From Lycium barbarum (taxonomy: Eukaryota > Streptophyta > Magnoliopsida > Solanales > Solanaceae): DNA of 64,000 nt. Shown here piece by piece: positions 1,152-25,799 of the stretch. The DNA is taken from contig NC_083344.1 of NCBI RefSeq assembly GCF_019175385.1, forward strand, positions 58,900,782-58,964,781, in the 5' to 3' direction. The notes beneath the pieces are model-generated. The model had not been told where the DNA came from and ran no database searches. It saw nothing but the letters and a program-made list of their open reading frames with translations. The position numbers and the translations under genes are program-made. Numbering within the stretch: position 1 is the stretch's first letter; each line of letters begins with the position of its first letter.

Positions 1152-1198
1152 AGGTCGGTCTAAGGGTTGTCTGCAAAGTCGTGTCCGGTAGAGTCCTG

Positions 1199-1232: not shown

Positions 1233-1320
1233 GGAGGCTACGGGGCATCTAGGGATTGTTGACCTTCTTTCTGTCTCTGATCGTGCGATAGAGCCAAGTC
1301 ATAGGAAATAAGATTCCTGA

Positions 1321-1342
1321 TACTAACCGTTAATTCCCGCAG
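1321..1342 (+). other. Candidate branch point and splice acceptor, element A leader
   Basis: TACTAAC (1321-1327) is followed by a pyrimidine-rich run ending CCCGCAG (AG at 1341-1342). This is the place where relatives have an acceptor directly before the gag ATG; here the next codon is ACG rather than ATG. Confidence 0.5.
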
Positions 1343-1841: not shown

Positions 1842-1944
1842 GAACGCGAAAATATCAACATTGAGACATCGAATTCCAGTGAAGTTTTTCGGTTAAGCGT
1901 GCTCAGGTGGGAGCAATTTCATGATGGGTGACCCCCTGGGAAGT
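1842..1944 (+). pseudogene. 5S rRNA-derived segment in element A
   Basis: A 103-nt stretch aligns without gaps to nt 1-103 of plant 5S rRNA (compared from memory). The 5' half is diverged. The 3' half keeps GGTTAAGCGTGCT (1891-1903), and the box C region GATGGGTGACCCCCTGGGAAGT (split as 1923-1930, 1931-1940 and 1941-1944) matches perfectly. It lies in the element's sense direction. A TTTTT inside it (within 1884-1889) and a TTTT about 10 nt downstream would stop RNA polymerase III. The last ~17 nt of 5S are absent. Identical flanks in B and C show one capture in a common ancestor. Confidence 0.88.
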
Positions 1945-3292: not shown

Positions 3293-3314
3293 GAACATTC
3301 GAGGACGAATGTTC
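3293..3314 (+). other. Pre-PPT hairpin, element A
   Basis: Perfect inverted repeat: stem GAACATTCG / CGAATGTTC with loop AGGA, ending 1 nt before the polypurine tract. Confidence 0.8.
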
Positions 3315-3315
3315 T

Positions 3316-3329
3316 AAAGGGGGGGAGGA
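3316..3329 (+). other. Polypurine tract, element A
   Basis: AAAGGGGGGGAGGA directly abuts the 3' LTR start TGTTATATCCCG, as expected for the plus-strand primer. Confidence 0.93.
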
Positions 3330-3716
3330 TGTTATATCCCGTAATTTATACGTTTGGATATTTCATGGTGGTTGCGGTGAGTTAAGGGAACGACCATCTT
3401 CCAAATGCAATTTAATGTACAAGTTGGTTATAAATATTATTTATGAACATCGGTTGTATGGAAATATTGAGAAAGGTTAAGGGTAAAAAGAGAAATTCAA
3501 GAAAATGGAAAAATTCTCTAGGAAATAAAGAAAGGAGCATGTGGCCATTTCATAAGTGAAAGGGGGCTAATTATAAATAATGAAAGAGTGTATGGACCAA
3601 GCTTGCTTAAGAAGACTTTTAGACTTCTTTGACCAGTTTTAGAAATTTCAAAAAAAGAAAAGAAAAAGAAAGAAATCTCTAGAGAGGGGCATGTGCCCCT
3701 CACATGCTTGGAAGCT

Positions 3717-3730
3717 TATATATATATATG
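3717..3730 (+). promoter_or_regulatory. Candidate TATA box, element A LTR
   Basis: TATATATATATATG about 390 bp into the LTR, followed by a stretch ending in a strong splice donor. A simple TA repeat could look the same by chance. Confidence 0.35.
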
Positions 3731-4824
3731 ACTAAGTCTTGAAAGGAAGACTAATTCATCAATTGCCAAGTCTAGAAAAATCAAAAAAGATCAAGAAAGA
3801 AAGAGAGGAGGAGAAAAGGGAAGGCCATTTCGGCTAAGACCTTGGAAAACTAGGCCCTTGATATCTTCTTCCAAAAATTAGTCTCTTCATGTATTCCTAC
3901 TAATCCAAGGGCCCTCTTCAACATGGTGCAATTGTTGGGGCAAGAAAACTATCCTTTGTGGCAAGTCCAAGATTCTAGTCAAGTGGAAAGTTAAGGAAGA
4001 AGGTAAGGATTCATGCTCTTTTATGTGTTATGGATGGTGTGTGAATATTGTTGTCTGTAAGAATGAATGAAAACCATAGAAATAATGTGTGTTGTAGGTA
4101 TGGCCGTGAGTGTATATTGTGTGTATGGCCGTGTATATTTGTTTTATTGTGATGGGATGGTAAGCAAATTTTATGTAGTATATTAGTTGTTGAAATGTAT
4201 GGACATGGATGAAGAATTCATGAAAATATATATGTAGTTGTGTTAGCTGAAAATAGTTGTATTTGTGGAGAAATGATGAATCAATTTTAGTAAGTATTTT
4301 AATTGTTGTGTTATGAATTCCATGATGTTAAATGAGGATTTAGTAGTTGGAAATGAAGTTGTGATTGTTTGTGGATCATGGAAGGTAGTGTGATGTTATT
4401 AGTATGATGTTGTAGTATGTAGTTCATGAATTTGAAGGAGAAAGGGAGTGTGTTGTTATTGTTCTTATTGGAATTGGAAGGCATCGGGTGAAGTAGTATG
4501 TCGGTAGAATCATTTAAATGTTATGCAATGTGAATTGAATATGAATGAAATGTCATTAGATTGTGTGACAAAGGTTGCCAACGTTACATTGTATCTTGGA
4601 TTAAATTGTTGACATTGTTGGCATGATTGTTGGTAATATTGTCGATAGTTTGGCCGGGTTGAATTCCCGAATTATTGTTGATTAAAATTTGGCCGAGTCA
4701 GAACCTCGGGGATGGTATATTTACAGGGGAAATGCTGCCGAAATTTCGGCAGACAAAGTGTTACTTTAAGGAATCAACTTCTAAAGGCCCTAATTAAGTT
4801 TTGGTAAACATGACCAATTTGTAA

Positions 4825-4876
4825 ATTTTGGCGGATTTGGAACGTGAATTTGGAGTATCAAAAGGAGCGGAACAAG
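4825..4876 (+). other. Candidate micro-exon, element A 3' LTR
   Basis: 52 nt between a degenerate acceptor (GTAA where other families have GCAG or GTAG) and donor AACAAG|GTATGTAAGG (GT at 4877). Closely similar to the copy in C. Confidence 0.5.
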
Positions 4877-6184
4877 GTATGTAAGGCTTCACCCTTCTTT
4901 CTATGGAATGTCTTAGACGTAATAAGTCGGATACAAGCCGCGGGGACAATTCTATTCTCCGGAACCCGCACCCAAAGTTTTCCCTTTTTCGTTAGTAGAA
5001 TTGAACTGAAAATTGTGCGAAATGTTAGAAAAACTTCCTAAACATCTAAAACTTGTATAAAGAGGACCCGACTACCCTAAAACCCTCCCAAGTGACGTCA
5101 TGAAATGTAACGAACGTAAATTTGGTACGCCGCCTCATTTGACCCGAGGTGGGCCCATGGTTCCCAGATTTTCCTTATTGTTCCATTTGACCTATTTTGA
5201 AGTAGAATCCAAAGGAAACTTTTGATCCTTATGTCGCTTATCAAACGACAAGTAATGTAGCTATTCTAATGAGAATACTTCTATGATGATAATGATAATG
5301 ATGAAGTAGGGAAGAGAATATGTCTATGACAAGTATGACGAGAATGATTGTATGTCTAAAAGTCTTAAGTGAAGGATTCAATATGAACACAAGAATAATG
5401 GACTAGTTCTTGAGTCCAACCCTATTCCTTTGTCATGACTCTATTTTCTAAAGACTCTAAAGTACATGAAATAATGTTTTATAAGCTTTACGATCTTGTC
5501 CCATGTTTTCCCTTAATGCTATTTTTCATTGATAGTCTCGCCTTATGATATTAGTTCCTTCAAGGTGAGGCATAACGATCATGATTGTTTCATAATGTAA
5601 TCGGAGGCTACCGACCATACGTCACTCCGACGTGGACATGGTTTTCTTGGACTCTCGAGCGTGTTGTATGCATGTTATAAGTATATGTATATGATGTATG
5701 TAAATGTATATGATAAAAGAGCCAGAGCGCTATAGACGCTGATATATGTACATGATGCATGTCTACGTATACGATAAAAGAGCCAGAGCGCTATAGACAC
5801 TGATATATATATACATGATGTATGTATATATATACGGGGAAGATGGGAATGAGGCCAGAGCATTATATACGCATATCCACCTGATCAGTTGGCATTATAT
5901 GACATGACATCGTCCTGGACGCGGGATGCCCGGACGCGGGATGTATATATTTATGGTTAAATGGATCGGCTGCCGACGCCTCGGCAATATGACATGTTCT
6001 ATTTTTATATATTTGAGCAAGAAATGTTTTTTTTTAAAGGAAAGCTAAGCATGCATGGTATCCGCCCTCAGCGGCCCTCATATGTACAGGTTACGCTTTT
6101 ATCCTATGACATGTTCTATGTTTCCAAGCAGTTGTTGTTCATACGCATATTTCTTGCTAAGTTACTAATCTTGCATTACATACT

Positions 6185-6240
6185 CGGTACATTGCTCGTA
6201 CTGACCCCTCTTCTTCGGGGGCTGCGTTCATGCTGCGCAG
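6185..6240 (+). other. Three-hairpin block, element A 3' LTR
   Basis: CGGTAC/GTACTG, then CCCCTCTTCTTCGGGGG, then CTGCG/CGCAG. The middle stem is better preserved than in the 5' copy. Confidence 0.68.
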
Positions 6241-6623
6241 GTACTCCCAAATGATTAGAAGACCTTACTGAAGATGTTCCAGCGGAGATGGCGAACTCCA
6301 TTTGTCCCGGAGAATTGCCAAGTCCAAGTATATGCTATGATGTTTTGTTCTATGTTAGAGGATTTGCAGACAGAGCAATGGGTATTGGGTTGTCAGTCTG
6401 TAAGCGGCTCCAGCAGGCGATATGTTATTATGTTTCATGTCACGAGTCTTACATGATGTCAGAGTTTACTGATGAAAAGAAAAAAAAATATTGGAGAGCT
6501 TACTATGTATTTCTTTCTTTACTGATTCAAGAGTTTCTATATGTAATAAGAGTCAACGGGTTCGCTCGGCTCCAGATATGGGGTCGGGTGCCCATCACAA
6601 CCTAGTAAAGTCGGGGTGTGACA

Positions 6624-8686: not shown

Positions 8687-9090
8687 TGTCACACCCTAAT
8701 CTCCCTAGGGTGCGATGGGCACCCGACCCTTACTTAGGGCCGAGCGAACCCTCAGACCCTTAGTGCACACATAATCTTCTTAGACTTTTAAATCAAATAA
8801 AGATGAAATACATAGTACAGCTTTCAGAAATATTCTTTTTCATCGTTATTCTCGAATCAAACAAAATCTGTAATCATGTAGGATTTATTACATAACACAG
8901 AATGACATATCGGCTGATGGAGCCGCTTACAAAACTGACATTCTATACTCACGACTCTGTCTGCAAAGTCTCTAACATTAATCAGAAATCATAGCACATA
9001 TACTCTGACTCGGCAGCACTGCAGGAGGAAATGGAGCTTGCCAACGCCGCTGGAACATCTTCTATAATGGCTTCTACTCATCTGGGTGTA

Positions 9091-9131
9091 CCTGCGCGGC
9101 ATGAAACGCAGCCCCCGAAGAAAAGGGGGTG
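9091..9131 (-). other. Three-hairpin block, element B 3' LTR (first hairpin deleted)
   Basis: On the minus strand: CCCCC/GGGGG around TTTTCTTC, then CTGCG/CGCAG. The GTACT half of the first stem is lost here compared with 24331-24389. Confidence 0.65.
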
Positions 9132-9384
9132 AGTATGTAAGGCATGGAATACAGCAAACAAAACCATAATCGAAACAAGCAGTACAAAAGTAAATACATT
9201 TTCAAAATACCAAAATGCTTATTTTTCAGAATGCAAATCGTGTATACCGATGTCATATGTCAAAAGAAGTACAGAAAATAGGTAGATCGTCCTGAGTGCC
9301 AAAATGCTTACTTTCCAAACACAGACCGTGCGTGCCAACATCGTATGTCATCATATACATATACATATAACTGATTCATATGAA

Positions 9385-9570
9385 ACATAATAGTGCTGAG
9401 GAACGTACGGCCCGATCCATATATAACATATTAGTGCCGAGGAACGTTCGGCCCGATCCATAAACATATTGCTGCGGAACGTGCAGCCCGATCCATAAAT
9501 ATATTGCTGCGGAACGTGCAGCCCGATCCATATACATATGTTATATTGCTGCGGAGCGTGCAGCAGGTTA
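9385..9570 (-). repeat. Element B hairpin-unit array
   Basis: Five units ending CCCGATCCATA (plus strand), each preceded by a different inverted repeat: GCTGC...GCAGC in some units, GCCGA...TCGGC in others. Stem bases change together while the flank is constant. Also present at about 24640-24820. Confidence 0.75.
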
Positions 9571-10081
9571 GTACAGATAATAAGCACGATATGCAGAGTA
9601 ATAAAAACAACATACTGGAAACACGAATCATGCATGCCAGGAACGGTATCCGGCCCCTTGCGGGACCCGGGGAACGTGGCGCCACCCTGCCTTTGGCGCC
9701 ACACACATCATACTCCAGAAGATTTGCTCCGTAATCTCCGTCACACATCATAATATCACATCATAAGATCAGAATATACATATACACATATATGGTTCGG
9801 CGAACCATGAACACATCATAATCGAACGTACTAGCATTTGAAGATCAAAACCTTAGTCATATCAATTATCTTTCGAATGCCATTTGGAAACTTATCAAAC
9901 GAACTTCGGACATCATAGATACGCATCAAAACCATATGAAACAACTTATGGAAGTCAAGAATATTAGCCATCCTAGTGGCTCTAAGAATAGGAAATTTCT
10001 GTGAAATCATACATATATGTCATTTGCTCGTTTCATAAAGATCATGCCAAAAGAAAGAAAGAAAGGGTAAGCCTTACATAC

Positions 10082-10132
10082 CTTGTCTGCTTCCTTAGCT
10101 AATCCGAACTTAAGTCTTGGCCTTTCCAAAAT
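10082..10132 (-). other. Candidate micro-exon, element B 3' LTR
   Basis: 51 nt on the minus strand between acceptor TTGTTATAG and donor ACAAG|GTATGTAAGG. Confidence 0.6.
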
Positions 10133-11493
10133 CTATAACAATATTAGTGAGTAACAAACATTAGATGTAGATGTCCAAGAACCTTATCCTGAACTAACAC
10201 TTTGTCTACAGAAATTTCGGCAGCATTTCCCCTGTAAATACAACAACCCCGAGAATTCAAGCCGGCCAAATTTATCAACAACCATACCAACAATTATTTC
10301 GACAATACCAACAATCTATTTGAAACATATTCCAACATTAGTAACCCGCTTTGACATAATTCAACGGCATTCCGTTTACATTCACTTTAACTACATACAA
10401 TCAAACCAACGCCAATGTTCGCATACTCCAACACTAATCCAATGTCATTTAAACAAGGCTCAAGAACATTTCAAACAATCCGCACAACATTCAAACAATC
10501 CAACCAAAACTCCATTCCACCCGAAACCTTCCAAATGCAACAAAAGCAACAACAATACATTTTCTTCTTTCAAATTCATGGACTATACCAACGATTCACA
10601 TGCTAGCAACATTATTTTCCATAATTACAAGAAGTGATATTATAGTCACTTTAGCTTCTAAAACAACTCTCCAACACTTACAACTTCAACTAGAATCATC
10701 AAGCTTTGATTATCAATATAGAATCCACAACAACAACAACCAAAACACTAGATAAAATAATTGAGTCATTATTCCTACACACACACACATACACACGGCC
10801 ACAATACATACATCCATATTTTCATGAATTTTACCCATTTCTACATACTACAACATACACAACCATCCATAACATATAAAAGAAGATTAATTCTTACCTT
10901 TTTCCCTTGATTTCCCTTTTGTCTAGAATTATGAACTTGCAACAAAGAGAGGTTTTCTTGCTCCAACAATTATACCACGTTAAAGAGGACCTTTGAATTA
11001 GTGGGAATACTAGAAGAAACTATTTTTTTGGATCAAATTTGGGAAGGCTTCAATTTTCCCTTCACTTGGCCGAATAGCTCCCTTGTTTGGGGTCTTCTCC
11101 AAGTTTCTTCTATTTTCCAAGTGTTAAGAATGAAAAATGTGAATAAATGGTCATCTTTTTATGTATATATATTAGGCCTCCATGTGGTCCTTGGACCACC
11201 CCCCATGGCCGGCCACTTGGCCCAATTTTTATCAAGCCCAATCCTTTTTTTTTTGTTTTGCACTTCATGAAGATTTATTTTCCAAATTTCAAATTTTCCC
11301 TTAGCCTCCCTCCATATTTTCATGAGTCATCTTGCGAATTTCCCTTTTTACCCCTAGCCTTTCTTAATATTTCCACATCAAATTTTTTTTTATAACCAAC
11401 TTATATACCAAACAAGATCAAAATATAGCCTTGTCTTTAACTTGTCGCAATTATCTCAAAATATACGAATGTGCAAAATACGGGATATAACAT

Positions 11494-11507
11494 CCTCCCC
11501 CCCTTTA
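11494..11507 (-). other. Polypurine tract, element B
   Basis: Read on the minus strand, CTAAAGGGGGGGAGGA-like purines directly precede the LTR start TGTTATATCCCG. Confidence 0.9.
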
Positions 11508-11528
11508 GAACATTCGTCCTCGAATGTT
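11508..11528 (-). other. Pre-PPT hairpin, element B
   Basis: AACATTCG/CGAATGTT stem with a 4-nt loop, adjoining the PPT as in A. Confidence 0.75.
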
Positions 11529-11639
11529 AAACTAGTCTTATAGGGTCTTACAAGCATTTCGGGGAGGTTAGCTTTTATAGTCATCACATATAATTCATTC
11601 ACCAATCAGTATAATCAATTAAGGAATTTAGATTACCTG

Positions 11640-11795
11640 TAGGCATAGGAAACAAGTGAGGGTACTTCTTCTTCATCTCTTCTTCAGCTTCCCAGGTCAT
11701 TTCTTCCCAGTTATCATTCCGCCACAATACCTTAACAAAAGCCACATTTTTGGTACGTAATCTTCACTTGATGATCTGATATGGCCACAGGCTAT
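11640..11795 (-). pseudogene. Chromodomain remnant of pol inside element B
   Basis: The minus strand translates to a decayed chromodomain end: TKNVAFVKVLWRNDNWEEMT, then WEAEEEMKKKYPHLFPMPTG. This matches the last part of the H pol (55440-55600) and those of D and G. The rest of pol is absent. It shows that B is a large internal-deletion derivative of an autonomous Tekay/Del element. Confidence 0.82.
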
Positions 11796-12776
11796 CCCTT
11801 GCTCTTACCTGACCCACAGTATTGCAGTCTTGCTTATCATGCTATAAATATCCATCGGCTTTTGGTGTTCTCCTTTCTTCGCCCCCTGTTTCTTTATGTC
11901 TTTGTCACTATCCTTTTTAATCTTTCATTCCAAATATGTACCCAAAAATATATGTACGTAATGTTTCTTTGCCAATTATTATCCTTCGCAGTCCAGTTGC
12001 GCTTATAGTGACTATGATCCGAATTCACCTAACTTCTTAGTTCGTAACATCTTCGAGTTCTTACTACAACTTTTTCTTTATTTCCTTCCCTCACATTTCT
12101 CGACAATACTTGTCTTTGATTTCTTTGTATTGGCGCTCACAGCGTCCTTCGTTATTTCTTGTTTGCTCTCCGGTGGGGATACCTTACAAATATGATCGAG
12201 CATCGCTTCACATCGATGATTCATATAAGTTCATAGCGTATATTCTCATGCTCCGTATAATTAATGGTCCATGAACTATTTTCTAGTATCCGATGAACTC
12301 TTTTATTTCACTCATAGGCACTGCGTCCTTTCTTTCCTTCAAAAATTTCCAAACTACCAATCGTTGGTATTTTTGTTTAATAGTCGTTGTTGTCCGAAAT
12401 ATCCCTTGAGTCTTATCATTCTCTCCATTATCCTTTATGAACTTAGCTTGTAGCCCTTTCTTGCTCTTTTTATTACTATTTAAAACATGTCGCTACGTAC
12501 TTAGGTACGGCGCAAATTTGCCCGATATGAGGGATTCAAATCATGTTCTGAACATATCATAATTCATGTTGGCATGAAGCATTCTCTTAAGGCGTCTTCC
12601 ATCCTTTCCCTTCATGCCGGCCTCATGATACACTCATTGTCAATTTGTTTTTACTTCTTTCATGTATTCTCTTGGTATGCCGATATGTTTTGAATTCTAG
12701 CCCCGAGCTAATAAATTTCCTTTTCTGGCTCTTGAAATTGTTATGATTCCTTTTAAGCCTAATATAATATGGCCTC

Positions 12777-12795
12777 CCCCCCCCCCCCCCCCCCC
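12777..12795. repeat. Poly-C/poly-G tract
   Basis: About 20 consecutive C (G on the element's sense strand). The length of such a run is uncertain in assemblies. Confidence 0.85.
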
Positions 12796-14241
12796 TTAAG
12801 GGGTTCTTTATATGCCAATAGTCCTTTTGTGAAGTCTTCGTTTATACCTTAATCCTCGTCTTTCCTTCCAACTCTGTGCACAACATATCGAAACTTCTTA
12901 CCATAAGCTTTCCTTTTCATTTTCTGTCTACATTATCATTCTTGTCAACATTCCCATATCTTCCTATCCACTATTAAATCTTTTCACCCATTTAGCTTAC
13001 TTACTCGTAGTGCTTCTTAACTACGCGCTTGTGGTGGGACAGTGCGTCCATGTTGTCTCGAGCGTCCTGCTACTTTGACCTTAGCATAAATTCCTTACAG
13101 ATTACATTCCCTCTATTCTCGCTCATCGAACCTTTAACCATGTTTATGATGCTGTGACCGAGCGGTCTCCCATGCACGTCCCTTGGATTGCATTCCATTT
13201 CCTTTGAGATCAAATCTTCCAGACCTCACATGAATTTTTGCTCCACACCATTAATCTCCCAATCAACAATGTCGACCCATTAGTATACTTTTCCTACTTT
13301 CATCCTTAACCTTCCCTAGGTTCCTTCCTCCTCGGACACTTTTCTTCTTTTGCCATTTGTGGCATCGGCTCTGAAGTTCGTAAAATTTTTACCTTAAACG
13401 CGCAAATTCGTATTATTTCCAAGTCATCCTTTCCGGAAAGCATTTCCATGTCCGAGGCAACCATATTAATATAGCTGCACATTTTATTCCTTTATATACC
13501 TTTCAAGGACCTAAATCTCCAAGCATCGTCGCAAGGCCTAATCATTCTTTTCTTGCTTCACATCCCTCGTCATAGTCACTATTCCTTCAGTCCCACTTAT
13601 TGAAATTGGTTTTCGAACTCCACACATTCCTCTTTTGTTCCATGTTACCATACTTTATCCTTTTCACGTGCCTACCTTTGAATTTTTATCCAAATAGTCT
13701 CGTACCTTTACCGGTAATTTCTCTCGGCGGTTTCACTCACCAAGGTTTTCTTAACTTGCATCTTTTCCCGACATCTGATCTCCTTGCCTTCCATTTACTC
13801 ACACTCTTTCTTTTCCAAATATCGTTGTATTAAAATTTCCAATCTTAACCCGTAGTAAAAATAATAGCAGCTTATCTTGTAACACTCGTACCATCTATTT
13901 TTGCTATCACTTGAACTTCAGTACCCTTATTCGATTGATGCCTTCCATATCGTAGCACCGGTTGCTGGGACACACATCACATGTCCGTCAATATAATCAC
14001 ATAGGGGATATCATGCGCATTCAAATAATTACTGCCAACTTGCTCACAAAATACCTCCAAACGCTATTCAAGCCTATCCAAATTCTAGAGCTGTGATGCA
14101 CTCTCTGTCTCTTCACCAGTCTAGTCTGCCTCGTCCTACGCGACCTCTTAGGGTCTCCAACCTTCCCATATATTTTAGTTTCCCTTAGGCTACTCTAACC
14201 TTCACTTATCTCTTGTATCTGAATTTACAGAACTTTAGTGC

Positions 14242-14344
14242 ACTTCCTAGAGGGTCACCCATCCTAAGATTTCTCTCACCCCAGCACGCTTAACCCCGAA
14301 ACTTTGATGAAATCTGGTGACTTAATGCTGATATAATCGCGTCC
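14242..14344 (-). pseudogene. 5S rRNA-derived segment in element B (best preserved overall)
   Basis: The reverse complement is 103 nt long and aligns gaplessly with nt 1-103 of plant 5S rRNA. I count roughly 80 matching positions against the consensus recalled from memory. It begins GGACGCGATTATATCAGCAT, keeps GGTTAAGCGTGCT and GAGAG, and ends TAGGATGGGTGACCC then AGGAAGT. Most differences are C to T or G to A, as expected from decay of methylated DNA. It is flanked upstream by GAGGAAGT, matching its own last bases. Sense to the element, inside the internal domain and not in the LTR, so it differs from Cassandra TRIMs. Confidence 0.92.
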
Positions 14345-15152
14345 ACTTCCTCGCATGACCTTCATTACATGATCTGGAGCAAGTCGAGGTCTTACGGATT
14401 TCGAGACATTTTCGTAACATGTCTTTCTCCTTTACAATTACTATTTTACCCTTTTCAATCCTCAATATTCAGTTTTCACTCATATGTGTACTACTCTTCG
14501 TCCTAGATTCCTAGATTCCCGATGGTAGCAAATATACCTTCGTCGCCGTTACTTGTAAGTATTCGGATATCAGTCTGTTCGGATTCCCACTCACCATTCT
14601 TGTATAATAATATATAGCAAAACTGATTGTCGACTCTCTGAATCCTCCAACAGACCTTGTTCCTACTAAGCCTCGAATGTTATCCATTGCAATCCTTCGG
14701 ACTGCTAATCGTCCTTCTCGCTATTATTCTTCATGTCATGCCAAATCCATAGCTTCTCTAAAATATCACATCCCACTTATGGTCTGTTTACGATATTCCC
14801 TTTCCACACTTCTTCCTGTTAGGCGTACTCAACTAAATGACCTGAGTTTTGAACAATTCTGGCAGAATCTTCTTTTACAGTTCTTACTATTCAGAATCCA
14901 CACACAGCAAATACCAACAATGCCTCACAGGGCATACAGTCATACGACATATTCCAGCCACCCAGAGCTTCCAATTTCCAAATAACAGAACAAATGTATC
15001 AAGGCTTACTTCCATAACTTTCCATATCATTACTTACCTCCTTCCGTCGTATATAAAGCTTATATAAGGAATTCTCATTTCCTATGACTTGGCTCTATCG
15101 CACGGTCTAAGACAGAAAGAAGCGCAACAATCCCTAGATGCCCTGTAGCCTC

Positions 15153-15189
15153 CTGTTTATAAATGTGGGCGGATTCACACCCATAAACA
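15153..15189 (-). other. Leader stem-loop, element B
   Basis: Minus strand GTTTATGGGTGTG pairs imperfectly with CCACATTTATAAAC, just after the PBS in the sense direction. Confidence 0.55.
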
Positions 15190-15234
15190 GGACTCTACTG
15201 GACACGACTTTGCAGACAACCCCTAGGAAAACCT

Positions 15235-15246
15235 ACTCTGATACCA
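15235..15246 (-). other. Primer-binding site, element B
   Basis: TGGTATCAGAGT on the minus strand: one mismatch to the tRNA-Met complement, three bases from the LTR end. Confidence 0.9.
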
Positions 15247-15249
15247 CTT

Positions 15250-15624
15250 TGACACACCCTAATCTCGCTAAGGTGCGATGGGCACCCGACCCTTACTTAG
15301 GGCCGAGCGAACCCTCAGACCCTTAGTGCACACATAATCTTCTTAGACTTTTAAATCAAATAAAGATGAAATACAAAGTACAACTTTCAGAAATATTCTT
15401 TTTCATCGTTATTATCGAATCCAACAAAATCTGTAATCATGTAGAATTTATTACATAACACAGAATGACATATCGGCTGATGGAGCCGCTTACAAAACTG
15501 ACATTCTATACCCACGACTCTGTCTGCAAAGTCTCTAACATTAATCAGAAATCATAGCACATATACTCTGACACGGCAGCACTCCAGGAGCAAATGCAGT
15601 TTACCAACGTCGCTGGAACATCTT
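15250..15624 (-). repeat. Element B 5' LTR, part 1
   Basis: Starts TGACACACCC (plus strand). Matches 8687 onward. Interrupted at 15624 by C with ATCTT duplicated. Confidence 0.94.
15620..15624. repeat. TSD of element C (left copy)
   Basis: ATCTT, repeated at 24296-24300. Confidence 0.95.
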
Positions 15625-16962
15625 TGTTATATCCCGTATTTTTGAACGTCAGATTATTTGCTGAGATGGGACCCACACATCAAGATTTTTTTGGGACATC
15701 TGAAAATTCATATGAATCACATATGAGAAGTTAAACACAACTCAAGAAGGACCCTTGGGCCAAATCAAAGTGGAAGTCCTCCAAACGAATATTTTAAGAA
15801 AACGTTTTCGGGTGATCTGACTTCAAGGGGCAAAAACGGTATTATAAGTTTGGAATTTGGAAAAGTACCAAGACCTAGAAGTTGTAGATAATTGAATTAG
15901 CTTTCCAACCATAGGTCGTGGTTCCCCAGGTGACGTCGGTACAAGGAGATATGAACGTTTTAAGGTCGAAAGGTCAGTGGGCTAGGCCCAACTCGGGACC
16001 AAACCGAGTTGGCCCAAAAAAATCAAAACAAATACTAAGGCCCAAATTTGTGAGGCCCAACCGGCCATGGTTATGGCCCAAGCCCATATTACATAAAATT
16101 TGGTCAATAAATAAGATGACTAAGTCATCTTTATCACACAACCTCTAGAACATTCAAGAAGTTGAAGAACAAGAAAGAGAAGGAGAAAAGTTGAAGGCCA
16201 TTTCGGCCAAGATCAAATTTCCAAGGAAAAATTGATAAACATTCTTCAAAAATCATTTTCTACCAAGTAAAGGGTGATTAACAAGGTGGAGTTGTTGTTG
16301 GAGCAAGAAAAATTCAAAATCATACAAATTGTCAAGTTGTAGTCAAGTGAGAAGTTGAAGAAGAAAGGTGAGTTTTGATCTTTTTTTATGTGTTATATAT
16401 GGTTTATATGTGTTGTAGTATGCTAAAATGGATGAAATTCATGAAGGAGAGAAATATAGTACATGGCCGTGTGTATGTATATATGTGTAGGAGTCATGCT
16501 TAAATTATTTTAATTAGTGTTTGGTTGTTATTGTTGTGAATGATATGTGGAAAATGGAAGTTGAATGAATTTTGAGAAGTTGTAGTGTGTATGTTGGTGT
16601 TGGTCATGTGGTTATGGTGAAAAAATGGAAGAGAATGAGTCAATTTTATTTAGTATGATTTTGTTGGAATATAGATTATGAGGTTGTTATTGTTTTCATT
16701 AAAGTTAGAAAGTTTTTGGAAGAAGTAGTAAGTCGATTGAATATGGAAGTTGTTAGTATTGTTGTTGTTGGAATTGTGGTTGATATTTTGGCCGGGTTTG
16801 AATTCCCGGGATTGTTGTTGATTGAAATTAGCCAAGTTGAACTTGGTGGGATGGAGTATTTATAGGGGAAGTGCTGCCGAAATTTCGGTAGCCAAATGTT
16901 TCCTTAAGAATTCAACTCTAAGTACCCTAATAAGAGTTTTGGTAAACATGACCAATTTGCAG

Positions 16963-17014
16963 ATTTTGACGAGATTGCGACGTGAATTTGGAATAGCAAA
17001 AGGAGCGGAAAGAG
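16963..17014 (+). other. Candidate micro-exon, element C 5' LTR
   Basis: 52 nt between CCAATTTGCAG (AG 16961-16962) and AAAGAG|GTATGTAAGG (GT 17015). A CCCTAAT branch-point-like motif lies about 30 nt upstream. Confidence 0.6.
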
Positions 17015-18353
17015 GTATGTAAGGCTTCACTCTTCTTTCTATGGCATGTCTTAGATGTAATAAGTCGAGTACGAGCCTCGGGGACAACCCTAGCCCCCGG
17101 AATCCGCATCCAAAGTTTTCCACTTTTTGTTCAATAGAATTGAACTAGAAAGTGTGCAAATGATGGAAAGACCTCTTAAACCCTTAGAACTTGCATAAGT
17201 GGGACCCGATTACCCTAGGACCCTCACAAGTAATGACATGACACGTAATATATGTAAATCATATACGTCACCCCATCCCGCCCGAGGTGGGCCCGCTACT
17301 CTCGTATTTTTCCTTACAGTCTTGCTTGACTTACTTAAAGTGAATCCAAAGGGAACTTTTATCCTGATTTCGTTACCAAATGATAAGTACTGTGACTCCT
17401 CTAACGAGGGCACTTCCATGACGATAATGATAACAATGATGTTAGATAAGAGAATATGCCTATGATACGTACTACCGGAACGACTCTATGACTAAGATGA
17501 CTAAGCTAAGTATCTTATGTAAACATGAAAATGATAAACTAATTTTTGAATATTATTTATATTTCCTAGCTATGACTTTATTTTCTAAAAGATTTCAAAG
17601 TCTATGAACTGTCATCTATGATGCCCCGATTTCATTCTACGTTTACTTTAATATTATTCCCCGTTGATAGTCTCACCTTAAAATACTCGTTCCTTCAAGG
17701 TGAGACAAAGCGATCACGAGTATTCTATAATGTAATCGGAGGTTACCGACTTTACGTCACTCCGATGACTACATGATGCTTCTTTGGGCTCTCCTGCGTG
17801 CATATGAGATATATGTTTATAGGATACGTAAATGCATATAAGACATGTAAATGTATGTAGGATATGCGTATATATTTTTAAAATATGCATATGACGAAAG
17901 AGCTAGAGCGCTATAGACGCTGATGTACCTACATGACACACGTATATGTATATGATAAAAGAGCTAGAGCGCTATAGACGTTGATATATGTACATGATAT
18001 ATGCATATGTATACGAGGGAAATGGAGGTAAGGGCAGAGCGTTATGAACGCATATCCACCTGATCAGTTGGCATTACATGATATGATATCGTCCCGGACG
18101 CGGGATGTGTATATTTATGGTTAAATGGATCGGCTGCCGACGCCTCGTCAATATGAGATGTCCTATTTTATATGTATATGTATATGAACAAGGAAAGATT
18201 CTTAAAGGAAAGCTAAGTACGCATAGCACCTGCCAAGGGTATATATATATATATACAGGTTATGTTTCTATCTCAGGACATGTGCTATTATTCTCTTATG
18301 TCGTTATTTCCGTTTTATACTTTCCGTATGCTACTATTCATGCCTTACATACT

Positions 18354-18411
18354 CGGTACACTATTCGTACTGACGTCCCTTCTTGTGGACGCTGCGTTTC
18401 ATGCCGCGCAG
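18354..18411 (+). other. Three-hairpin block, element C 5' LTR
   Basis: CGGTAC/GTACTG; middle stem GTCC/GGAC around CTTCTTGT (where A, B, H and I have C/G runs); CTGCG/CGCAG. Confidence 0.72.
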
Positions 18412-18824
18412 GTCAGCAGACAGGCGGATTTGATACTTAGAAGCTCTACCAGCAGTGTTGACAGTGCTCCAGTTATTCCGGAGCCTCACTTCCTTGGTAC
18501 TATTTTGTGTATATATATTCGGGCACAGCAGTACTCAGCCCTTTCTATGTATAAGTGTACTACGTCTAGAGGCTCGTAGACAGTTATGTACAGTCAGTTA
18601 AGTACAGTTAGATATATGGTGTTTTGGCATGTTAATGTTGATGTATAAGTGATAACGAAGTTTATTAGTCTATGTTCAGAATGACGCCGCTAATGTTAAT
18701 GTTCAAAAACAAAATGGCTCTGTTTACATGGCTTGCTAAGAGGTAAAGGTAAAACGATAGACAAGGGGTGCTCGGTACAAGTATCGGGTACTCGTCACGG
18801 CCCCTAGACGGGTCGTGACAGAAG

Positions 18825-18917: not shown

Positions 18918-19034
18918 AGGAGGCTACAGGGCATTTAGGAAATGTGACCTTCTTTGCATTCTGAAATCGTGCGATAGAGCTAAATTGCCAGGCTTCCATA
19001 TTCCTTTTCCTAAACCTGTGTTATGGTTTCATTA

Positions 19035-20579
19035 ATGCCGCCGAAGAAAAAGGCTACGATGGCCGAGAAAGCCAAGGGGGTGGCGGCCAGCAGAGTTGAA
19101 CGGGAGCAAGAAGAAGAAGAATCTCATAATGAGGCTCCCCCTCAGACTGTTCCTGCTCCCCCTGCACCAGCAGAGCAGGAAAGAGTTCCAGCTCCAGCCC
19201 CCGCACCTCCAGTTCCACCGCCAGCAGTTCCGGGCCAGCAGATGGCAGAGGCCATCCAGTTATTAACCCAGCTCGTTGCCGCACAGGCTCAGCGGCAAGA
19301 TGTAGACCTGGGAGGCAGAGCGGTAAGTGCAAGGGCCCGCGACATTATCACCCTGAAGCCTCCAGAGTTTTATGGATCAAAACCAGAGGAGGACCCGCAG
19401 AGTTTTATAGATGAGATGCTGAGGACTCTGGGGATCATACATGCTTCGGATACGGAATCCGTAGAGTTGGCTTCATACAGGCTGCGGGATGTGGCAGTTC
19501 TGTGGTACAGTAGCTGGATATCATCGAGGGGAGCAAATGCACCCCCTCCGGTTTGGCAGGAGTTCACTGAGGCGTTCCTGCGACATTTCCTACCGCCAGA
19601 GGTTCGACGGGCTCGATCCGATATGTTCTTAAACCTGAGACAGGGAAATATGAGCGTTCGAGAATACAGCCTCCATTTAAATTCATTAGCCAGGTATGCC
19701 CCAGCCATGATAGCGGATAAGGGAGATCATGTACACCGATTTGTGAGTGGGCTAGGGCCACATTTGGTTAAGGAATGTTTGACAGCTTCACTCCAGGACG
19801 GGATGACTATTACTCGAATCCAGGCCCACGCCCAAAATCTGGAGGAACAATATCAGCCACGGCGAGAGGAGCGTTACCCAGATAGGGGTTCCAGAAAAAG
19901 GGGCAGGTTTTCCAGGACTAGAAGCGAGTACAGAGGGGGACAGGCACAAGAGCTATTCAGGCATTCAGAACAACCGGCGGCCAGTGCACCGCCTCGATTT
20001 ACGGATAGGGGACTTGACCGTTCTACTCACTCGCGACCAGATCAGGGTACTAAGGCGTCAGGATCCCAGTATAGAGCTGATTCTAGCAGGATGATGCCAC
20101 CCCCGCCACGGTGTGCGCGATGTGGTAGACCACATTCTGGAGAGTGTCGCGCAGGTACAGGTGCATGTTATACTTGTGGGCGGGTTGGCCATTTGATGCG
20201 TGATTGCCCACTGAGGTATGAGGGAGACCAAGCCCAGCCCGTCGGGTCCGCGGTTGGTTCATCGTCGACCGTACGCCCTCTTGGACAGACTTCCCAAGCT
20301 CAAGCGGGCCGCGGCCAAGGTAGAGGAGGGACACCTAGTTCAGCTGGTCCTCCGCACCGCCTATATGCATTGAGAGGACGACAGAACCCTGAGCCTTCCG
20401 CAGACGCGGCCACAGGTACTTTTTCGGCACCTTCTATGATGTGTATGTTAATTGATTCGGATTCTATCCTATCCTACGTTGCCTTTATATTGCTGATCAT
20501 ATTAAGAATTCAGAAATTAGGACGAAAGGTAGCCATACGCACAGGTAAGAAGACGAATACTAGAGATTGCGGAGGTTAG
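19035..20579 (+). CDS. gag: Gag polyprotein with a truncated protease start (514 aa), element C
   Basis: Capsid/nucleocapsid protein that packages element RNA in cytoplasmic particles. I chose the ATG at 19035 because MPPKK is the start shared with D, G (MPKKK) and H; an in-frame ATG lies 12 nt upstream. Residues about 10-90 are Glu-rich then Pro/Ala-rich. Residues about 100-270 are the retrotransposon Gag domain (FYGSKPEEDPQSF, ELASYRLRDV, FLRHFLPPEVRRAR, NLRQGNMSVREYS). Two zinc-binding motifs follow: CARCGRPHSGEC (from about 360) and CYTCGRVGHLMRDC (from about 378). The frame reaches the protease start but reads LIDSDS where relatives have LIDPGS, then runs into unrelated sequence. The gag part has no stop codon, unlike gag in D, G and H. 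Confidence 0.92.
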   Translation: MPPKKKATMAEKAKGVAASRVEREQEEEESHNEAPPQTVPAPPAPAEQERVPAPAPAPPVPPPAVPGQQMAEAIQLLTQLVAAQAQRQDVDLGGRAVSARARDIITLKPPEFYGSKPEEDPQSFIDEMLRTLGIIHASDTESVELASYRLRDVAVLWYSSWISSRGANAPPPVWQEFTEAFLRHFLPPEVRRARSDMFLNLRQGNMSVREYSLHLNSLARYAPAMIADKGDHVHRFVSGLGPHLVKECLTASLQDGMTITRIQAHAQNLEEQYQPRREERYPDRGSRKRGRFSRTRSEYRGGQAQELFRHSEQPAASAPPRFTDRGLDRSTHSRPDQGTKASGSQYRADSSRMMPPPPRCARCGRPHSGECRAGTGACYTCGRVGHLMRDCPLRYEGDQAQPVGSAVGSSSTVRPLGQTSQAQAGRGQGRGGTPSSAGPPHRLYALRGRQNPEPSADAATGTFSAPSMMCMLIDSDSILSYVAFILLIILRIQKLGRKVAIRTGKKTNTRDCGG

Positions 20580-21105
20580 AACTGTAAATAAAAGAAGAGA
20601 TGTGTTACGCGGCGTTTCGAAAACTGCTAAGACCCCAACTCGTTCCATAATATGTGATATAAGTAGTGCGAGGGAGTGGGGGCGAAAATACTAACGCTAA
20701 GACGCTGAAATGCTCTAAAGTTTCAAGGTTAAGCGTGCTAGGTGAGAGTAATTTCATGATGGGTGACCCCCTGGAAAATATGCTGAAATTTTCACAAATG
20801 TGGGAACAAGAGACGAATGTGAAGCTAGGTAGTCCAATGTAAATTAGAGTGTGTGGAGTGGTTACAAACCCTATAAAAGTCATGTAGGCTGAAACGGACA
20901 AGACTAACGGAAGAGGAGAAAGCGTGACAGAAAGGGGACTTATTAACGTGGGGCCAACGTTCGGAGCTTACTCAATGGACTTACGACATAAAAGCGACCT
21001 AAGCGACATGTGAGATGTCTACGAAGGAGACCTCCCCCGAAGTATTATGATACACTATGAGGCCAGTTTAACATTTGAGGACGAATGTTCTAAAGGGGGG
21101 GAGAA
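20500..21105 (+). other. Element C post-gag non-coding tail
   Basis: Homologous to the internal domain of A (for example GCCATACGCACAGGT and GTCATACACACAGGT), joined directly to the protease start. This marks the deletion junction that removed pol. Contains the 5S-like segment, a pre-PPT hairpin (21070-21090, one mismatch) and the PPT (21092-21105). Confidence 0.82.
20677..20779 (+). pseudogene. 5S rRNA-derived segment in element C (most diverged)
   Basis: 103 nt equivalent to the A and B copies, with GGTTAAGCGTGCTA, GTGAGAGTA and GATGGGTGACCCCCTGG kept. The 5' half is recognisable mainly through A and B. A TTTT lies about 10 nt downstream. Upstream flank CGAGGGAGT matches the AGGAAGT flank in the other two. 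Confidence 0.82.
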
Positions 21106-22442
21106 TGTTATATCCCGTATTTTTGAACGTCAGATTATTTGCTGAGATGGGACCCACACATCAAGATTTTTTTGGGACATCTGAAAATTCATATGAATCA
21201 CATATGAGAAGTTAAACACAACTCAAGAAGGACCCTTGGGCCAAATCAAAGTGGAAGTCCTCCAAACGAATATTTTAAGAAAACGTTTTCGGGTGATCTG
21301 ACTTCAAGGGGCAAACACGGTATTATAAGTTTGGAATTTGGAAAAGTACCAAGAACTAGAAGTTGTAGATAATTTAATTATCTTTCCAACCATAGGTCGT
21401 GGTTCCCCAGGTGACGTCGGTACAAGGAGATATGAACGTTTTAAGGTCGAAAGGTCAGTGGGCTAGGCCCAACTCGGGACCAAACCGAGTTGGCCCAAAA
21501 AAATCAAAAACAATAATAAGGCCCAAATTTGTGAGGCCCAACCGGCCATGGTTATGGCCCAAGCCCATATTACATAAAATTTGGTCAATAAATAAGATGA
21601 CTAAGTCATCTTTATCACACAACCTCTAGAATATTCAAGAAGTTGAAGAACAAGAAAGAGAAGGAGAAAGTTGAAGGCCATTTCGGCCAAGATCAAATTT
21701 CCAAGGAAAAATTGATAACAATTCTTCAAAAATTATTTTCTACCAAGTAAAGGGTGATTAACAAGGTGGAGTTGTTGCTGGAACAAGAAAAATTCAAAAT
21801 CATACAAATTGTCAAGTTGTAGTCAAGTGAGAAGTTGAAGAAGAAAGGTGAGTTTTGATCTTTTTTTATGTGTTATATATGGTTTATATGTGTTGTAGTA
21901 TGCTAAAATGGATGAAATTCATGAAGGAGAGAAATATAGTACATGGCCGTGTGTATGTATATATGTGTAGGAGTCATGCTTAAATTATTTTAATTAGTGT
22001 TTGGTTGTTATTGTTGTGAATGATATGTGGAAAATGGAAGTTGAATGAATTTTGAGAAGTTGTAGTGTGTATGTTGGTGTTGGTCATGTGGTTATGGTGA
22101 AAACATGGAAGAGAATGAGTCAATTTTATTTAGTATGATGTTGTTGGAATATAGATTATGAGGTTGTTGTTGTTTTCATTAAAGTTAGAAAGTTTTTGGA
22201 AGAAGTAGTAAGTTGATTGAATATGGAAGTTGTTAGTATTGTTGTTGTTGGAATTGTGGTTGATATTTTGGCCGGGTTTGAATTCCCGGGATTGTTGTTG
22301 ATTGAAATTAGCCAAGTTGAACTTGGTGGGATGGAGTATTTATAGGGGAAGTGCTGCCGAAATTTCGGTAGCCAAATGTTTCCTTAAGAATTCAACTCTA
22401 AGTACCCTAATAAGAGTTTTGGTAAACATGACCAATTTGCAG

Positions 22443-22494
22443 ATTTTGACGAGATTGCGACGTGAATTTGGAATAGCAAAAGGAGCGGAAAGAG
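22443..22494 (+). other. Candidate micro-exon, element C 3' LTR
   Basis: Same 52-nt unit as in the 5' LTR; GT donor at 22495. Confidence 0.55.
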
Positions 22495-23825
22495 GTATGT
22501 AAGGCTTCACTCTTCTTTCTATGGCATGTCTTAGATGTAATAAGTCGAGTACGAGCCTCGGGGACAACCCTAGCCCCCGGAATCCGCATCCAAAGTTTTC
22601 CACTTTTTGTTCAATAGAATTGAACTAGAAAGTGTGCAAATGATGGAAAGACCTCTTAAACCCTTAGAACTTGCATAAGTGGGACCCGATTACCCTAGGA
22701 CCCTCACAAGTAATGACATGACACGTAATATATGTAAATCATATACGTCACCCCATCCCGCCCGAGGTGGGCCCGCTACTCTCGGATATTTCCTTACAGT
22801 CTTGCTTGACTTACTTAAAGTGAATCCAAAGGGAACTTTTATCCTGATTTCGTTACCAAATGATAAGTACTGTGACTCCTCTAACGAGGGCACTTCCATG
22901 ACGATAATGATAACAATGATGTTAGATAAGAGAATATGCCTATGATACGTACTACCGGAACGACTCTATGACTAAGATGACTAAGCTAAGTATCTTATGT
23001 AAACATGAAAATGATAAACTAATTTTTGAATATTATTTATATTTCCTAGCTATGACTTTATTTTCTAAAAGATTTCAAAGTCTATGAACTGTCATCTATG
23101 ATGCCCCGATTTCGTTCTACGTTTACTTTAATATTATTCCCCGTTGATAGTCTCACCTTAAAATACTCGTTCCTTCAAGGTGAGACAAAGCGATCACGAG
23201 TATTCTATAATGTAATCAGAGGTTACCGACTTTACGTCACTCCGATGACTACATGATGCTTCTTTGGGCTCTCCTGCGTGCATATGAGATATATGTTTAT
23301 AGGATACGTAAATGCATATAAGACATGTAAATGTATGTAGGATATGCGTATATATTTTTAAAATATGCACATGACGAAAGAGCTAGAGCGCTATAGACGC
23401 TGATGTACCTACATGACACACGTATATGTATATGATAAAAGAGCTAGAGCGCTATAGACGTTGATATATGTACATGATATATGCATATGTATACGGGGGA
23501 AATGGAGGTAAGGGCAGAGCGTTATGAACGCATATCCACCTGATCAGTTGGCATTACATGATATGATATCGTCCCGGACGCGGGATGTGTATATTTATGG
23601 TTAAATGGATCGGCTGCCGACGCCTCGGCAATATGAGATGTACTATTTTATATGTATATGTATATGAACAAGGAAAGATTCTTAAAGGAAAGCTAAGTAC
23701 GCATAGCACCTGCCAAGGGTATATATATATATATATATATACAGGTTATGTTTCTATCTCAGGACATGTGCTATTATTCTCTTATGTCGTTATTTCCGTA
23801 TGCTACTATTCATGCCTTACATACT

Positions 23826-23883
23826 CGGTACACTATTCGTACTGACGTCCCTTCTTGTGGACGCTGCGTTTCATGCCGCGCAG
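23826..23883 (+). other. Three-hairpin block, element C 3' LTR
   Basis: Identical stems to the 5' copy (middle stem GTCC/GGAC). Confidence 0.72.
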
Positions 23884-24295
23884 GTCAGCAGACAGGCGGA
23901 TTTGATACTTAGAAGCTCTACCAGCAGTGTTGACAGTGCTCCAGTTATTCCGGAGCCTCACTTCCTTGGTACTATTTTGTGTATATATATTCGGGCACGG
24001 CAGTACTCAGCCCTTTCTATGTATAAGTGTACTACGTCTAGAGGCTCGTAGACAGTTATGTACAGTCAGTTAAGTACAGTTAGACATATGGCGTTTTGGC
24101 ATGTTAATGTTGATGTATAAGTGATAACGAAGTTTATTAGTCTATGTTCAGAATGACGCCGCTAATGTTAATGTTCAAAAAAAAAAAAGTGGTTCTGTTT
24201 ACATGGCTTGCTAAGAGGTAAAGGTAAAACGATAGACAAGGGGTGCTCGGTACAAGTATCGGGTACTCGTCACGGCCCCTAGACGGGTCGTGACA

Positions 24296-24300
24296 ATCTT
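24296..24300. repeat. TSD of element C (right copy)
   Basis: ATCTT. Confidence 0.95.
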
Positions 24301-24330
24301 CTATAATGGCTTCTACACATCTGGGTGTAC

Positions 24331-24389
24331 CTGCGCGGCATGAAACGCAGCCCCCGAAGAAAAGGGGGTCAGTACGGAATATGTACTGA
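24331..24389 (-). other. Three-hairpin block, element B 5' LTR
   Basis: Minus strand: CAGTAC/GTACTG around ATATTCC, CCCCC/GGGGG around TTTTCTTC, CTGCG/CGCAG. All three stems intact. Confidence 0.7.
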
Positions 24390-25748
24390 GTATGTAAGGC
24401 ATGGAATACAGAAAATAGAACCATAATCGAAACAAGCAGTACAAAAGTAAATACATTTTCAGAATACCAAAATGCTTATTTTTCAGAATGCAAATCGTGT
24501 ATACCGATGTCATATGTCAGAAGAAGTACAGAAAATAGGTAGATCATTCAGAGTGCAAAAATGCTTACTTTCCAAACACAGACCATGCGTGCCAACATCG
24601 TATGTCATCATATACATATACATATAACTGATTCATATGTAACATAATAGTGCCGAGGAACGTACGGCCCGATCCATATATAACATATTAGTGCCGAGGA
24701 ACGTTCGGCCCGATCCATAAACATATTGCTGCGGAACGTGCAGCCCGATCCATAAATATATTGCTGCGGAACGTGCAGCCCGATCCATATACATATGTTA
24801 TATTGCTGCGGAGCGTGCAACAGGTTAGTACAGATAATAAGCACGATATGCAGAGTAATAAAAACATCTTACTGGAAACACGAATCATGCATGCCAGGAA
24901 CGGTATCCGGCCCCTTGCGGGACCCGGGGAACGTGGCGCCACCCTGCCTTTGGCGCCACACACATCATACTCCAGAAGATTTGCTCCGTAATCTCCGTCA
25001 CACATCATAATATCACATCATAAGATCAGAATATACATATACACATATATGGTTCGGCGAACCATGAACACATCATAACACCGTAACACATCATACTCCG
25101 GAATACATATATGGCACCCGGCCCTCAAGCAAGGGACCCGGCGAACCATGCGCACGATATATACCGGCCCGGGACTCGGCGAAAAAGGTAATGGCACATG
25201 CACGAGCAGAGTAGTGAGAAACTATATGCATATAAATCAAGACTCGATAGATAAGTATACTTACCAACACCTGAAGGCTCAGAAACAAGTTTCGGGTCAA
25301 TCCGACTCAGTATAAGAAAGTTCTGAGCGTTTGAAGTACAGAACCTTCTACGAACATTTTAGAAGCTATTTTTTGGAAAATCAAAGCAACAATCATATCA
25401 AGTATCTTTCGGATATCGCTATGGATCAAATCAAATAGAGCTTTTGGAACCATACGTACATATCAAAATATATCAAAGACTCAATGGAATAATCGAACGT
25501 ACTAGCATTTGAAGATCAAAACCTTAGTCATATCAATTATCTTTCGAATGCCATTTGGAAACATATCAAACGAACTTCGGACATCATAGATACGCATCAA
25601 AACCATATGAAACAACTTATGGAAGTCAAGAATATTAGCCATCCTAGTGGCTCTAAGAATAGGAAATTTCTGTGAAATCATACATATACGTCATTTGCTC
25701 GTTTCATAAAGATCATGCCAAAAGAAAGAAAGGGTAAACCTTACATAC

Positions 25749-25799
25749 CTTGTCTGCTTCCTTAGCTAATCCGAACTTAAGTCTTGGCCTTTCCAAAAT
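25749..25799 (-). other. Candidate micro-exon, element B 5' LTR
   Basis: 51 nt; acceptor TTGTTATAG, donor ACAAG|GTATGTAAGG. CACTAAT lies about 20 nt upstream of the acceptor as a possible branch point. Confidence 0.6.

What the first reader, a model, noticed from the sequence alone, without database searches (positions are those of the whole stretch)
14242..14344. A near full-length 5S rRNA sequence embedded in the internal domain of a non-autonomous gypsy element
Seen: on the minus strand 103 nt align gaplessly to nt 1-103 of plant 5S rRNA at roughly 78% identity by hand count against the sequence recalled from memory. Most differences are C/T or G/A. The same 103-nt unit occurs in A (1842-1944) and C (20677-20779), always sense and always in the internal domain. 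Known: Cassandra TRIMs carry 5S sequence in their LTRs. A 5S passenger in the internal domain of LARD or TR-GAG Tekay-type elements is not something I know to be described.
Basis: partly seen in the sequence, partly recalled or inferred. Interest (0 to 1): 0.93.

Follow-up and report, generated by a model that had tools for sequence, protein, structure and literature searches.

The report
5S promoter kept inside plant retrotransposons
A large family of defective plant jumping genes carries a piece of the 5S ribosomal RNA gene in its middle, and the two short stretches that act as that gene's switch stay nearly unchanged while the sequence around them drifts, which suggests that the switch is useful to the element rather than being a harmless passenger.

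Summary
Three non-autonomous gypsy-type elements (A, B, C) carry 102-103 nt matching nt 1-103 of the host's 5S rRNA, sense, between PBS and 3' LTR (blastn E 8e-10, 3e-19, 6e-9). They score below Rfam's 5S cut-off, but 12 of 14 relatives tested reach it. The unit is family-wide: 7,580 places match an element-type box A/IE pattern, and 40 of 40 copies picked only by upstream flank carry it. It does not behave as a passive passenger. In those 40 copies the 5S promoter boxes A and C are the best conserved windows of the stretch: between copies whose flanks differ by 0.42, the boxes differ by 0.09 and the rest of the unit by 0.36. Base-pair covariation is absent, helix I cannot form, and no Pol III terminator is conserved, so the constraint looks DNA-level: a TFIIIA/Pol III-type internal control region. 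Cassandra and Ajax carry 5S promoters in the LTRs of miniature elements; here it lies in the internal domain of elements with about 3.2-kb LTRs, where it cannot drive full-length RNA. What it does is inferred, not shown.

The parts
14242..14344 (-). 5S-derived unit of element B, matches 5S nt 1-103, 80 of 103 identical
1842..1944 (+). 5S-derived unit of element A, 69 of 103 identical
20678..20779 (+). 5S-derived unit of element C (102 nt, one base fewer than its relatives)
14283..14294 (-). box A core GTTAAGCGTGCT (5S nt 51-62) in B
14242..14263 (-). box C stretch (5S nt 82-103) in B
1892..1903 (+). box A core in A
1..1136 (+). 5' LTR of element A, visible part; its start is at window coordinate -2141
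1137..3329 (+). internal domain of A: PBS-like site at 1140, PPT before 3330, no ORF of 180 aa or more
3330..6623 (+). 3' LTR of A; 5-bp TSD GTGGA
8687..11492 (-). 3' LTR of element B
11493..15249 (-). internal domain of B, no ORF of 180 aa or more
15250..15624 (-). 5' LTR of B, inner piece; C is nested between it and the outer piece; TSD CTTAT
24296..27136 (-). 5' LTR of B, outer piece
15625..18820 (+). 5' LTR of element C; TSD ATCTT
19023..20579 (+). gag ORF of C, 518 aa (Retrotrans_gag, zinc knuckle), ends 98 nt before the unit
21106..24295 (+). 3' LTR of C

Best explanation
One ancestral non-autonomous Ty3/gypsy element captured nt 1-103 of a 5S rRNA gene or transcript in its internal domain, and its descendants have kept the 5S internal control region (boxes A and C) as a working DNA element. 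Most likely it binds TFIIIA and attracts the Pol III machinery inside the inserted copy. Transcription from it would start inside the element, so it cannot make the full-length RNA needed for copying; the benefit is therefore probably local, for example keeping the copy accessible or resisting silencing so that the LTR promoter can work. Shown: 5S origin, place, strand, copy number, constraint on boxes A and C, absence of covariation. Inferred: factor binding, Pol III recruitment and the benefit.
For: 5S origin. One capture: the type copies of A, B and C share 10 changes from 5S. Same place and strand: 5' UTR/PBS region upstream on the same strand in 27 of 30 B-type and 30 of 30 A-type loci and in 3 of 3 near-5S copies followed outward. 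Constraint without picking by the unit: in 40 copies chosen by 26 nt of upstream flank, mean pairwise identity is 0.926 for box A and 0.938 for box C against 0.783 for nt 1-49, 0.810 for nt 65-79, 0.710 upstream and 0.738/0.642 downstream; the two-box template ranks 4th of 339 placements, the three better ones lying 2-4 nt away; box divergence is 0.088-0.096 where flanks differ by 0.38-0.42 and the rest of the unit by 0.35-0.36. In 20 copies chosen by box A/IE, box C, not chosen on, has 0.912 against 0.554-0.735 for the neighbouring segments outside box A and nt 98-103. Fixed differences fall in boxes A and C at 4 of 44 sites, private mutations at 13 of 38, Fisher p 0.0065. Against an RNA fold.
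Against: No transcription or binding data. No conserved Pol III terminator: TTTT within 40 nt after the unit in 0 of 28 B-like and 6 of 12 C-like copies and 16 of 29 A-type copies scanned. The box limits are recalled from other species; with IE included the fixed-versus-private test weakens (p 0.037), and taken type by type it is 0.03-0.06 without IE and 0.06-0.22 with it. Copies are related, so all p-values are indicative. The flank-picked set comes from one chromosome.
Confidence: 0.6

Rival explanations
1. The unit acts as RNA: the element's RNA carries a 5S-like fold that binds TFIIIA or ribosomal protein L5 and so steers its splicing, export or packaging.
For: Pairs inside nt 1-103 are mostly kept (19, 18, 18 and 18 of 21 in the four type copies), C-type retention being slightly above its null (p 0.03; the other three 0.07-0.26). 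The true pairing beats slid pairings (0.850 against at most 0.661), as descent from 5S alone would also give. Plant 5S mimics are recalled.
Against: Across 58 distinct units the standard-pair fraction is 0.850 against 0.848 in shuffles, 127 of 500 reaching it; 13 of 34 5S pairs have a partner beyond nt 103; predicted folds are ordinary (z B -0.01, A -0.53, C -1.78).
Confidence: 0.17
2. Neutral passenger: a 5S fragment captured once and decaying at the rate of its surroundings.
For: Outside the boxes the unit's divergence is close to that of the flanks (0.36 against 0.42 in the most distant pairs).
Against: Boxes A and C stay at 0.09-0.10 in the same pairs, and two differently chosen sets of copies agree. 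The box A CpG is kept in 32 of 40 flank-picked copies, although methylated CpG normally decays, so a mutational cold spot is unlikely.
Confidence: 0.08
3. The unit is refreshed from time to time by recombination or template switching with host 5S RNA or genes, so that similarity to 5S reflects conversion, not selection.
For: A clade exists with units 88-98 of 103 identical to host 5S although its flanks have diverged (lowest pair 63%, mean 74%); one copy, L147, equals 5S over nt 1-95.
Against: Refresh would not spare the boxes alone; the 10 shared changes persist beside the boxes in the type copies of A, B and C; the near-5S units form one clade on the flank tree, and the sister copies L144 and L148 share three unit changes. 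Those six copies were picked for a 5S-like nt 50-84.
Confidence: 0.1
4. The block is a Cassandra LTR, or a 5S-derived SINE, that inserted into an ancestral gypsy element.
For: The block that C shares with A and B is about 380 nt with the 5S inside; Kojima 2024 (sections 17 and 19) discusses SINE3 insertion for Cassandra and Ajax.
Against: Of 10 dispersed canonical 5S sites fetched, 6 belong to this same family, 3 are full-length dispersed 5S and 1 is array-like; none was recognised as Cassandra. LTR-like ends of the block were looked for by eye only, so this stays weakly tested.
Confidence: 0.05

Closest known systems
Cassandra (5S-bearing TRIM; PMC7215508, PMC10853983, passages and one section seen)
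   Same: Non-autonomous LTR element with a 5S-derived region whose promoter boxes are conserved while sequence beside them varies; tandem LTR-internal arrays are described there, and similar regular spacing is seen here.
   Different: Cassandra carries the 5S in its LTRs, where it can promote element RNA, and is about 0.6-0.9 kb without coding. Here the LTRs are about 2.8-3.3 kb, the 5S is single and internal, and type C still has gag.
Ajax / TRIMp3 (Kojima 2024, PMC10886601; abstract, passages, sections 17 and 19 seen)
   Same: 5S-derived promoter region with box A, IE and box C in a non-autonomous LTR element.
   Different: Nemertean, 421-434 bp, promoter part only and in the LTR; here nt 1-103 in the internal domain of a plant element.
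LARD and TR-GAG non-autonomous gypsy elements
   Same: A and B have large LTRs and no ORF of 180 aa or more (LARD-like); C has gag only (TR-GAG-like).
   Different: Definitions are recalled; neither is defined by a 5S unit, and the paper searches listed none with one.
Tekay/Del chromoviruses (name recalled)
   Same: Neighbouring gag-pol elements share the 5' UTR/PBS region and gag with C and have integrase and a weak chromodomain.
   Different: Those in the window have no 5S match.

Membership tests
Cassandra | 5S-derived region inside the LTRs | tested here: not met
   Unit lies between PBS and 3' LTR, one per element
Cassandra | miniature size, no coding | tested here: not met
   A, B, C are about 8.7-9.8 kb from the coordinates; C has a gag ORF
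Cassandra | promoter boxes conserved, other 5S-derived sequence variable | tested here: met
TRIMp3 (Ajax, Helenus) | TRIM with a Pol III promoter in the LTR | tested here: not met
RF00001 5S rRNA | score at or above gathering (38 bits) | tested here: not met
   A 17.3, B 33.4, C 22.3 bits; 12 of 14 chosen relatives pass
LTR retrotransposon | LTR pair, PBS, PPT, 5-bp TSD | tested here: met
   TSDs A GTGGA, B CTTAT, C ATCTT
LARD | large LTR element, internal domain without coding | tested here: met
   A and B: no ORF of 180 aa or more in the internal domain; shorter ORFs not examined
TR-GAG | gag as the only coding region | tested here: met
   C: Retrotrans_gag E 1e-17 plus zinc knuckle; no other ORF of 180 aa or more in its internal domain, no blastn match there to the neighbours' pol
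Tekay/Del chromovirus | RT phylogeny and integrase chromodomain | tested here: inconclusive
   Chromodomain 21.4 bits against cut-off 25.1 in a neighbour; no RT tree made
Type-1 Pol III promoter | TFIIIA binding and Pol III transcription | not testable with these tools
   only sequence constraint was measured

The most novel reading that the evidence does not exclude
A class of large LTR retrotransposons that keeps, by selection, a 5S-type Pol III promoter in its internal domain rather than its LTR, in several thousand copies in one genome, and uses TFIIIA/Pol III binding for something other than making its own genomic RNA, such as resisting silencing.
Probability: 0.42. Interest if true: 0.85.

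Novelty: new variant of a known kind. Interest (0 to 1): 0.74.

Why it matters
In the papers seen here, 5S-derived promoters in LTR elements lie in the LTRs of miniature elements, where their use is plain. Finding the same two boxes kept where they cannot promote element RNA suggests that Pol III factor binding may serve an element in another way. It also matters practically: thousands of TFIIIA-box-like sites outside the 5S arrays could confound 5S counts, 5S FISH probes, and Pol III ChIP or small-RNA mapping in such genomes.

Tried and rejected
Origin by template switching at a 6-nt GGAAGT present at both ends of the unit: suggested by A and B, but several core-picked copies closer to 5S lack it upstream, so dropped. 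Coding explanation for the boxes: only read by eye, the frame through box A meets TGA at nt 81-83 in A and C types; no tool test. RNA-fold conservation: the window's C looked suggestive (5 two-sided changes, p 0.003), but with a commoner C-type copy it fell to 3 (p 0.08), and the 58-sequence test was negative. Conservation seen in loci picked by the unit itself was set aside as biased. One search, over 69 copies, also mixes in 26 picked by box sequences; the report relies on the same count over the 40 flank-picked copies with the picked 26 nt left out. Limits of sampling: the 40 are 40 of the first 100 listed of 3,824, all on C1 and without mismatch to the flank pattern; the 20 box-picked are 20 of the first 100 listed of 7,580, also on C1; the 10 dispersed 5S sites are 10 of the 15 dispersed ones among the first 100 listed of 566; 10 of 40 C-type hits were fetched. 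Pattern counts are places, not intact elements. No copy without the unit was seen among the 40, so no empty site was found. In 'private' mutations come from 60 unit-picked loci and the C column from the window copy alone. One script stopped on L119, which I had fetched with wrong offsets; it was kept after a fix. The host species was not established. Cassandra was not recognised in the sites read. L010 and L011 were fetched and not used.

Full report
The window lies on contig C8 (133.5 Mb) of a 1.67-Gb genome. The host's own 5S genes, mostly in an array on contig C6, served as reference. Against that reference the unit of element B matches nt 1-103 without gaps at 80 of 103, A at 69 of 103, and C from 20678 with one missing base. 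The rest of the window gives no match better than E 0.12. Rfam's 5S model scores B at 33.4, C at 22.3 and A at 17.3 bits, below its cut-off of 38.

Anatomy. All three are LTR elements that begin TGTTATATCCCG and end in GACA or similar, with a PBS-like TGGTATCAGAG site 3-4 nt after the 5' LTR, a purine tract before the 3' LTR and perfect 5-bp target duplications. LTRs are 2.8-3.3 kb. LTR pairs differ at 41 of 3,275 (A), 62 of 2,779 (B) and 30 of 3,181 (C) aligned sites, that is 0.9-2.2%; at a recalled grass rate of 1.3e-8 per site per year these would be insertions of under 1 My. C is nested in the 5' LTR of B. C keeps a 518-aa gag; A and B show no ORF of 180 aa or more in the internal domain. 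In A and B the unit lies about 0.7 and 0.9 kb after the 5' LTR, in C 98 nt after gag and 326 nt before the 3' LTR. Unit and adjacent flanks are homologous in all three. The gag-pol relatives in the window share the 5' UTR and gag with C but show no 5S match.

Family. Searching the genome with each unit gave 40 of 40 scored hits at 93-100% (B; 3,368 candidates), 95-100% (A; 2,002) and 97-100% (C; 1,493); only 40 were scored each time. Of 30 loci cut for each of B and A, the 5' UTR/PBS region lies upstream on the same strand in 27 and 30; 9 of the 30 A-type loci also show a reverse-strand match of the 5' UTR, which an inverted repeat within it explains. The 26 nt before the unit, at up to 2 mismatches, occur at 3,824 places (2 for the reversed control). 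An element-type box A/IE pattern at up to 1 mismatch occurs at 7,580 places (0 for the control). Of 40 copies fetched by the upstream pattern, 40 carry the unit. Of 20 fetched by the box A/IE pattern, 20 have a downstream flank matching A, B or C (one weakly, 25 nt at E 6e-4) and 19 a matching upstream flank. Of 10 dispersed canonical 5S-like sites, 6 belong to this family, with units 88-98 of 103 identical to host 5S and the match ending near nt 103; for three of these six, followed outward, 3 of 3 have a PBS upstream on the same strand. 12 of 14 chosen relatives pass Rfam's cut-off, at 38.9-77.3 bits; six of the twelve had been picked for 5S likeness, and one C-type and one B-like copy do not pass. 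The type copies of A, B and C share 10 changes from 5S, so one capture is the simplest reading.

Constraint. Loci found with the unit show the unit better conserved than its neighbours, but that is biased. In the 40 copies found by upstream flank only, mean pairwise identity is 0.926 for box A (50-64), 0.938 for box C (80-97), 0.810 for 65-79, 0.783 for 1-49, 0.710 upstream and 0.738 and 0.642 downstream. The best 12-nt windows of that stretch start at nt 49-51 and 82-90; within the B-like subset alone the junction that was picked on and nt -7 to -2 rank first. Sliding the two-box template over the stretch puts the true place 4th of 339, the better ones within 4 nt, and the best more than 20 nt away at 0.870, itself overlapping box A, against 0.933. 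In the 20 copies found by box A/IE, box C scores 0.912, 7th of 402 placements, and the best place more than 20 nt away 0.780. Among pairs of the 40 flank-picked copies, boxes A and C diverge by 0.061, 0.055, 0.096 and 0.088 as flanks go through 0.157, 0.227, 0.376 and 0.416, while the rest of the unit goes 0.101, 0.134, 0.348 and 0.360. Fixed differences from 5S in A, B and C fall in boxes A and C at 4 of 44 sites, private mutations at 13 of 38 (p 0.0065; with IE 6 of 44, p 0.037; weaker type by type). Box A is intact in 32 of 40 and the box C core in 37 of 40 flank-picked copies.

DNA or RNA. The unit stops at nt 103, so 13 of 34 5S pairs have a partner outside it. Pair retention in the type copies is 18-19 of 21, not clearly above a mutation-placing null (p 0.03-0.26), and in 58 distinct sequences the paired fraction equals shuffled data (0.850 against 0.848, 127 of 500 shuffles reach it). 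Predicted folds are ordinary. TTTT, the usual Pol III stop, follows within 40 nt in 0 of 28 B-like, 6 of 12 C-like and 16 of 29 A-type copies scanned, and first at +191 in B and +391, +1 and +198 in three near-5S copies. So a defined small RNA does not seem to be what is conserved; two DNA boxes are. These are the boxes (limits recalled) that TFIIIA reads in 5S genes and that Cassandra conserves (PMC10853983 section 14).

Mechanism. The boxes lie downstream of the 5' LTR and PBS. A transcript begun at the unit lacks both and cannot be copied into a new element, so the promoter cannot serve as in Cassandra or Ajax. I take the likeliest use to be local: factor binding that keeps the copy accessible. 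This step is inference; I give the specific anti-silencing reading about 0.25 and the general reading, a selected DNA-level 5S control region, about 0.6.

Literature. The searches in an open-licence library listed no paper whose title or shown abstract start reports a 5S unit in the internal domain of a gypsy element; most listed papers were not opened, and subscription papers and repeat databases were not searched. The novelty claim is limited to that.

Noticed in passing
G000:C1:87081470-87102135; G000:C9:63070874-63080932: 5S-bearing elements at regular spacing: five same-strand units about 5.14 kb apart and three about 4.98 kb apart, like the LTR-internal arrays described for Cassandra.
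   Followed up: no
L143, L146, L150: Dispersed full-length 5S copies that include the 3' end and trailer, outside the C6 array, with unrelated upstream sequence; L150 has a 51-bp direct repeat on either side of the 5S.
   Followed up: partly
L151 (G000:C5 near 76.0 Mb): Three diverged 5S-array-like repeats within 1 kb, away from the C6 array.
   Followed up: no
window 1137-1285 and homologous places: In the more distant A-type loci (L058-L071, picked by the unit) the PBS and next 150 nt are 92-95% like A while the following 380 nt are 74-84%; the stretch contains an inverted repeat. Possibly a packaging signal.
   Followed up: no
L142, L144, L145, L147, L148, L149: A clade of this family whose unit is still 88-98 of 103 identical to host 5S although its flanks average 74% identity.
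   Followed up: partly
window 15625-24295: Element C is inserted within the 5' LTR of element B.
   Followed up: yes
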